From the NCBI GenBank assembly GCA_005885405.1, contig VAYN01000005.1, positions 82,583 through 146,582 of the forward strand: a stretch of DNA of 64,000 nt. The letters are read 5' to 3'. Under the pieces are notes generated by a model. The model had not been told where the DNA came from. It saw only the letters and a list, made by a program, of their open reading frames with translations, and did no database searches. This stretch comes from Actinomycetota bacterium. GTDB lineage: Bacteria > Actinomycetota > Thermoleophilia > Solirubrobacterales > 70-9. A program made the translations under genes and the position numbers. Positions 18,888-21,442 of this stretch are shown here, piece after piece (the stretch's first letter is position 1; every line of letters starts with the position of its first letter).

Positions 18888-21442
18888 CTAGCTCAGCTCG
18901 GCGAGTTCGGTGCGGTAGCGCTCCAGCTTCCCCCGCTCCTCCTCGACCACCTCGGCCGGCGCCTTCTCGACGAAGCCCTCGTTGCCGAGTTTGCGCTCGC
19001 CGCGCTCGACCTCCGACCGCAGCTCGGCGCGGCGCTTCTCGAGGCGCTCGGCAACCGCCGCGGCGTCGAGCTGGTCGGAGTCGAGCACCCGCACCGGGCC
19101 GATCGAGGCGACCGGCTCGGCGCCGATGCCGTCGAACTCGACCCGGGAGAGGCGGGAGACAAAGGGGGGCGGCTCGACCCCGTCGATCACCGCCGCCAGC
19201 TTCGCCCCGGCGGGGACGCCGGCGAGATCGCGCCAGGCGCGCAGCCGCTGGGTCAGCCTGATGCCGCTCTCGACGTCGGTTTCGGCGGCCTCGTCGAAGA
19301 GCGACTCGTCGGCCTGCGGGAAAGCGTGGACGGTGAGGTGTCCTTGGCGCGAGGGATGGAAGTTCCAGATCTCCTCAGTGACGAAGGGCATCGTCGGGTG
19401 CAGCAGCGCCAGCACCCGCTCGAGCGCGTAGAGGAGCGTCGCCGAGACCTCCTCCTCGCCGTCGTAGAGGCGCGGCTTGGCGATCTCCAGGTACCAGTCG
19501 CAGAGGTCGCGCCAGAAGAACGAGTAAGCCTCCTGCACCGGTCGTAGGTCTCGAGCTTCTCGGTCACCGAGGCGATCGTCCGCTCCAGCCGCGAGAGGAT
19601 CCAGCGGTCCTCGACGCAGGTCGGCCGCGGCGCCGCCTCGACCTCAACCGTGTTGAGGAGGATCAGCCGGCTCGCGTTCCAGAGCTTGTTGGCGAGGTCG
19701 CGTCCCTGCTGCACCTTGGCGTCAGAGAAGCGGACGTCCTGGGTCGAGGACATCGCCAGCAGGCCGAAGCGCAGCGCGTCGGCGCCGTGGACGTCGATTT
19801 CCTCCAGCGGGTCGATTCCGGTGCCGAGGCTCTTCGACATCCGCCGCCCGTCGCGGGCCTGGATCACCGAGTGGACGTAGACGTCGCGGAAGGGGATCGC
19901 GCCCGGGAACTCGATCCCAGTCATGATCATCCGCGCCACCCAGAGGAAGAGGATCTCCCGCGCCGTGGTCAGGAAGCTGGTCGGGTAGAAGGCGCGCAGC
20001 TCCGGGGTGTCGTCGGGCCAGCCGAGGGTCGCGAACGGCCAGATCGCCGAGCTGAACCAGGTGTCGAGGACGTCCTCCTCCTGGCGCAGCTCGCCGCCGC
20101 AGGAGCCGCAGCGCTCGGGCACCGCCGCCGGATCCTCGGCGACGTAGACCTCCCCGCAGGCGTCGCAATACCAGACCGGGATCCGGTGGCCCCACCAGAG
20201 CTGACGGGAGATGCACCAGGGCCGGATCTCCCCCATCCAGTCGAGGTAGACGCGCTTCCACTGCGACGGCGTGATGTGGACCTCGTCGCGTTCGACCACC
20301 TCGATCGCCGGCTGCGCCAGCTCGTCCATGCGGCAGAACCACTGCAGCGAGATCAACGGCTCGATCCGCTCGCCGGAGCGGTGCGAGAAGGGGACCGAGT
20401 GGGTGTAGGGCTCCTCGGCGCGGAGTCGGCCCTCGGTGCGCAGCGCCTCGACGACCGCCGCCTGCGCCTCGGCCGCCGTAAGCCCCTCGAACTTCCCCGC
20501 CTCCTCGGTCATCCGCCCGTCGGGGCCGATCACGCCGATCTCCTCGAGCCCGTGCTGGCGGCCGATCTCGAAGTCGTTGGGGTCGTGGCCGGGGGTGATC
20601 TTCAGCGCCCCGGTGCCGAACTCGACGTCAACGTGCTCGTCGGCGATGACCGGGATGCGGCGACCGACCAGGGGCAGGACCACGTGCTGTCCGACGAGGT
20701 GGCCGTAGCGCTCGTCGTCGGGGTTGACGGCGACGGCGGTGTCGGCCAGCATCGTCTCCGGCCGCACCGTGGCGACGGTCAGGACCTCGTCGGAGCCCTC
20801 GACCGGATAGTCGATTGAGTAGAGGACGTCCTCGACCTCGCGGTTCTCGACCTCGAGATCGGAGATCGCCGAGTGCGAGCCGGGATCCCAATTGACCATG
20901 TAGTTGTCGCGGTAGATGTAGCCCTTGTCGAAGAGCTGTTTGAAGACGCGGTAGACGGCCTTGACGTAGCCCTCGTCGAGGGTGAAGCGCTCGCGCTCGT
21001 AGTCGCAGGAGGCACCCAGCCGCTTGTACTGCTCGACGATCCGCGAGCCGTACTCGGCTTTCCACTCCCAAACCCGCTCGACGAAAGCCTCCCGCCCCAG
21101 ATCGTGGCGGCTCTTCCCTTCTTTCCGCAGGTCTTTCTCGACCACCGCCTGGGTCGCGATCCCGGCATGGTCGGTCCCCAGGATCCAAAGCGTGTTCTTG
21201 CCCCGCATCCGGTTCATCCGCACCAGCGCGTCCTGCATCGAGCCGTTCAGCGCATGCCCCATGTGCAGCGCCCCGGTCACGTTCGGCGGCGGGATCGCCA
21301 CCGAGAAATTCTCCACCGGCGACCCCTCCGCCTCCGGGTGAAAGTACCCCCCGTCGATCCACTCCGCAAAGACCCGAGCCTCAACCTCGGTCGGGTCGTA
21401 ACGCGTCGTGCTCTCGAGTTTTTGCCGGTCCCCCGCGCTCAC
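18888..21442 (-). pseudogene. valS: Valyl-tRNA synthetase split by a frameshift near 19538-19545
   Basis: 21442-19253 ORF carries the ValRS catalytic core (PPPNVTGALHMGHAL, GRRMSKSLGTGIDP). The anticodon-binding and C-terminal part (QEAYSFFWRDLCDWYLEIAKP...) continues in another frame (18888-19538). Either pseudogene or assembly error. Confidence 0.88.

What the first reader, a model, noticed from the sequence alone, without database searches (positions are those of the whole stretch)
19530..19552. Frameshift in essential valS, consistent with about 10 missing nucleotides
Upstream frame reads ...VTEKLETYD then garbage (RCRRLTRSSG); downstream frame reads VQEAYSFFWRDLCDWYLEIAKP. Against the ValRS pattern (YxFxxAxxxLYxFxWxxFCDWYLE) four residues are missing between YD and VQ; two bases (CG, fitting an Ala GCG) remain, so 10 nt appear lost. 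ValRS is normally single-copy and essential.
Basis: partly seen in the sequence, partly recalled or inferred. Interest (0 to 1): 0.6.

Follow-up and report, generated by a model that had tools for sequence, protein, structure and literature searches.

The report
Assembly gap breaking a housekeeping gene
The gene for the valine-charging enzyme of this uncultured bacterium reads as broken because exactly ten bases are missing, and the same kind of loss recurs elsewhere in the same draft genome, so it is most likely an assembly error and not biology.

Summary
On the minus strand valS (window 21442 to 18888) is split into two frames at 19538-19541, and the sequence is exactly 10 nt shorter than in close relatives, which read ETYD-FAHA-VQEAYSFF where the window reads ETYD-(CG)-VQEAYSFF. 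It is the only valS in the held genome (2.6 Mb, 30 contigs, 93% complete), in its native position, and both halves look selectively constrained. The 10 bases are probably not missing from the organism. The contig is a scaffold: 10 runs of N (6-125) occur in 622 kb sampled, one ending at the base before the window. Where relatives allow measurement, N runs are shorter than the true distance (by 10, 13, 65 and 1 nt). Four other genes on the same scaffold carry N-free, frame-breaking deletions of 22, 32, 40 and 71 nt between conserved halves. The valS break fits this class: a join where bases were dropped. No frameshift signal, second gene or split-protein arrangement was found. Raw reads, which I could not see, would settle it. 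Verdict: ordinary artefact, about 87% likely.

The parts
19541..21442 (-). 5' part of valS (valine--tRNA ligase), catalytic and editing region up to ...EKLETYD
   Evidence: TIGR00422 872.6 bits, profile positions 3-630; 91.5% DNA identity to G009 valS
19253..19540 (-). out-of-frame tail read after the break in the upstream frame (no homology)
   Evidence: ORF 19253-21442 continues ~95 codons past the break
19538..19541 (-). break point: 10 bases fewer than in relatives (between the GAC of YD and the GTG of VQE; leftover CG at 19539-19540)
18888..19538 (-). 3' part of valS (anticodon-binding and C-terminal region), in another frame; its GTG is the internal Val codon of VQEAYSFF
   Evidence: NF004349 133.5 bits, positions 622-856; dN/dS 0.21-0.32 to relatives

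Best explanation
Assembly artefact. The organism (an uncultured member of a genus whose named relatives are Solirubrobacterales MAGs) has a normal single-copy valS; the deposited scaffold lost 10 bases where two pieces were joined or a short gap was closed without leaving N. Shown: the 10-nt deficit, its uniqueness to this genome, the scaffolded nature of the contig, the tendency of its N gaps to be too short, and other N-free deletions in conserved genes on the same scaffold. Inferred: that the valS site is such a join, since no reads were available.
For: Ten N runs of irregular length (6, 8, 11, 11, 15, 27, 35, 57, 58, 125) in 622 kb of this genome, one (57 N, C28:82526-82582) ending just before window base 1. 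Measured against relatives, N runs are 10 (57 N, 67 bases in both G009 and G003), 13, 65 and 1 nt too short. N-free frame-breaking deletions in otherwise conserved genes on the same scaffold: glycosyltransferase-like gene -71 (C28:197100), M23 peptidase -40 (213631), acyl-CoA dehydrogenase -32 (231752; halves 91% and 98% identical), luciferase-like oxidoreductase -22 (246885). fumC on C30 is interrupted by an 8-N gap 65 nt too short. All these clear cases are losses. valS is the only valS, sits in conserved synteny, and both halves look constrained (dN/dS 0.21-0.33) with no identity step at the break.
Against: No read data, so the join is not seen directly. The valS junction is clean, whereas some other junctions (glycosyltransferase, acyl-CoA dehydrogenase) have mismatched bases beside them. 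The survey compared mainly one relative (G009) over about 240 kb and needed hand checking because antisense and boundary ORFs give false splits.
Confidence: 0.87

Rival explanations
1. A real, very recent 10-bp deletion carried by part of the population (dead or dying cells, or a merodiploid lineage), picked up by the assembler as the consensus.
For: The junction is clean and no N marks it; both halves are otherwise intact, as expected for a very recent event.
Against: ValRS is essential and no second valS is held. Several other conserved genes on the same scaffold show the same type of loss, which one organism would not be expected to have.
Confidence: 0.1
2. The exact sequence still gives a working ValRS, by ribosomal frameshifting or as two separately translated halves.
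For: The downstream frame opens at 19643, so the two frames overlap, and a GTG stands at the start of the 3' part.
Against: The only X-XXY-YYZ-like heptamer in the overlap lies about 215 nt past the break. The sequence shows no clear Shine-Dalgarno-like motif just before the GTG, which is the conserved internal Val codon. Frame restoration by -1 would still lack three residues (FAH) that genus relatives keep.
Confidence: 0.02
3. valS is a true pseudogene and a second ValRS lies in the roughly 7% of the genome not assembled.
For: Completeness is 93.2%.
Against: The broken copy is in the native, syntenic position and looks constrained in both halves; the family search shows essentially one valS per genome.
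Confidence: 0.01

Closest known systems
Bacterial valine--tRNA ligase (TIGR00422 / NF004349), valS of sister genomes G003, G009, G010
   Same: Same gene, same synteny, 81-92% DNA identity by half
   Different: 10 nt missing, so the frame breaks at the start of the anticodon-binding region
Scaffold-gap and join errors of draft metagenome-assembled genomes (general knowledge)
   Same: Irregular short N runs, underestimated gaps and losses inside conserved genes
   Different: At valS no N marks the join, so it reads like a natural frameshift

Membership tests
Bacterial ValRS (TIGR00422, NF004349) | Match over the curated cut-off | tested here: met
   The upstream part alone scores 872.6 bits against cut-off 612.1, but only to profile position 630
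Bacterial ValRS (TIGR00422, NF004349) | Continuous catalytic plus anticodon-binding regions in one frame | tested here: not met
   3' part lies in another frame after a 10-nt loss
Assembly artefact at a scaffold join | Scaffolded sequence with N gaps whose lengths disagree with relatives | tested here: met
Assembly artefact at a scaffold join | Same lesion type in other conserved genes of the same scaffold | tested here: met
   -22, -32, -40, -71 nt without N
Assembly artefact at a scaffold join | Reads disagree with the assembled junction | not testable with these tools
   no reads available
Programmed -1 frameshifting | Slippery heptamer at or before the break | tested here: not met
   none; a single TTTCCCG about 215 nt downstream

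The most novel reading that the evidence does not exclude
A free-living bacterium truly carries only this split valS and makes ValRS from two pieces or through an undescribed recoding event.
Probability: 0.02. Interest if true: 0.7.

Novelty: not a real feature. Interest (0 to 1): 0.06.

Why it matters
Little biologically. Practically, it shows that draft genomes of this kind can hold N-free deletions that mimic pseudogenes, so apparent loss of essential genes here should not be read as biology.

Tried and rejected
Second valS copy: none by profile or DNA; the other hits are IleRS/LeuRS/MetRS-like relatives. Slippage between repeats: no direct repeats of 8+ nt in the 141 bases around the site. 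Chimeric join of two species: identity profiles against G009 and G003 show no step at the break; the lower G009 identity of the 3' half is local to 19034-19221 and is shared by the G003-G009 pair. Frameshift elsewhere in the window: the apparent splits near 58 kb are intergenic or antisense reading frames. Broken valS in a sister genome (G011): a run of N. One pattern search was ill-conceived and uninformative. One literature search gave nothing I relied on.

Full report
What is there. The minus strand carries valS between clpX (upstream) and folC (downstream). The upstream ORF (19253-21442) matches the ValRS profile only to position 630; the 216-aa ORF 18888-19538 continues it from position 637 in another frame. 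The sequence at the junction reads ...GAG ACC TAC GAC CG GTG CAG GAG GCT TAC... Close relatives have four more residues there, D-FAHA-V. The difference is exactly 10 bases, confirmed by gapped DNA alignment to G009 (518 versus 528). The names clpX and folC are my reading of the translations.

Single copy. A profile search of the window's genome (G000: 2.61 Mb, 30 contigs, 93.2% complete) gives only this valS over the cut-off; the other hits are relatives such as IleRS, LeuRS and MetRS. A DNA search with 501 bases across the site finds only itself. The gene is in conserved order with G009. Named relatives from GTDB are MAGs labelled Solirubrobacterales or Thermoleophilia.

Is the gene decaying? 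Both halves look constrained: dN/dS 0.21-0.33 upstream and 0.21-0.32 downstream against four relatives, similar to 0.28 between two intact relatives. Neither half has a second stop or frame error. No step in identity occurs at the break. This fits either an artefact or a very recent event.

Is it the assembly? In 622 kb sampled from G000 there are ten N runs of irregular length, so the 'contigs' are scaffolds; G009 has none in 892 kb. One run of 57 N ends at C28:82582, just before window base 1. In both G009 and G003 the same interval is 67 bases, so this gap is also 10 too short. A 6-N gap is 13 too short, an 8-N gap inside fumC is 65 too short, and a 35-N gap is about right. I then looked for conserved genes split across two frames. 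After discarding antisense and gene-boundary cases, four further N-free deletions stand on the same scaffold: -71, -40, -32 and -22 nt, inside a glycosyltransferase-like gene, an M23 peptidase, an acyl-CoA dehydrogenase and a luciferase-like oxidoreductase, with flanking halves 69-98% identical in protein to G009. Searching in reverse (G000 ORFs against G009) recovers most of the same events as extra bases in G009; the few opposite-sign hits are small or lie near ORF ends and were not hand-checked. The glycosyltransferase name rests on my reading of its sequence, not on a family search.

Interpretation. One genome with several conserved genes cut by small, N-free losses, on a scaffold whose marked gaps tend to be underestimated, points to dropped bases at joins. 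The valS break is the same kind of event. This step is inference: I could not see reads or contig boundaries.

Alternatives. A true recent deletion in a subpopulation cannot be excluded. Recoding or a split enzyme has no support: there is no slippery heptamer at or before the break, no clear ribosome-binding-like motif before the GTG, and three conserved residues would still be missing.

Noticed in passing
G000 C28:82526-82582, just before window base 1: Run of 57 N inside a small unnamed conserved gene; the same interval is 67 bases in G009 and G003.
   Followed up: yes
G000 C28:197100, 213631, 231752, 246885: N-free frame-breaking deletions (71, 40, 32, 22 nt) in conserved genes, outside the window.
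   Followed up: yes
G000 C30:27784: fumC interrupted by an 8-N gap about 65 nt too short.
   Followed up: partly
G000 C4:79189-81384 and C28:78518-80962: Two LeuRS-like genes (747 and 832 aa open frames); the C4 one is divergent (193 bits for a 348-aa part, against 442 for a 393-aa part of the other) and may be a paralogue with another role.
   Followed up: no
G000 C28 around 214300: A repeat-rich, calcium-binding-like protein also appears split (-43 nt), but it is too divergent to call.
   Followed up: no
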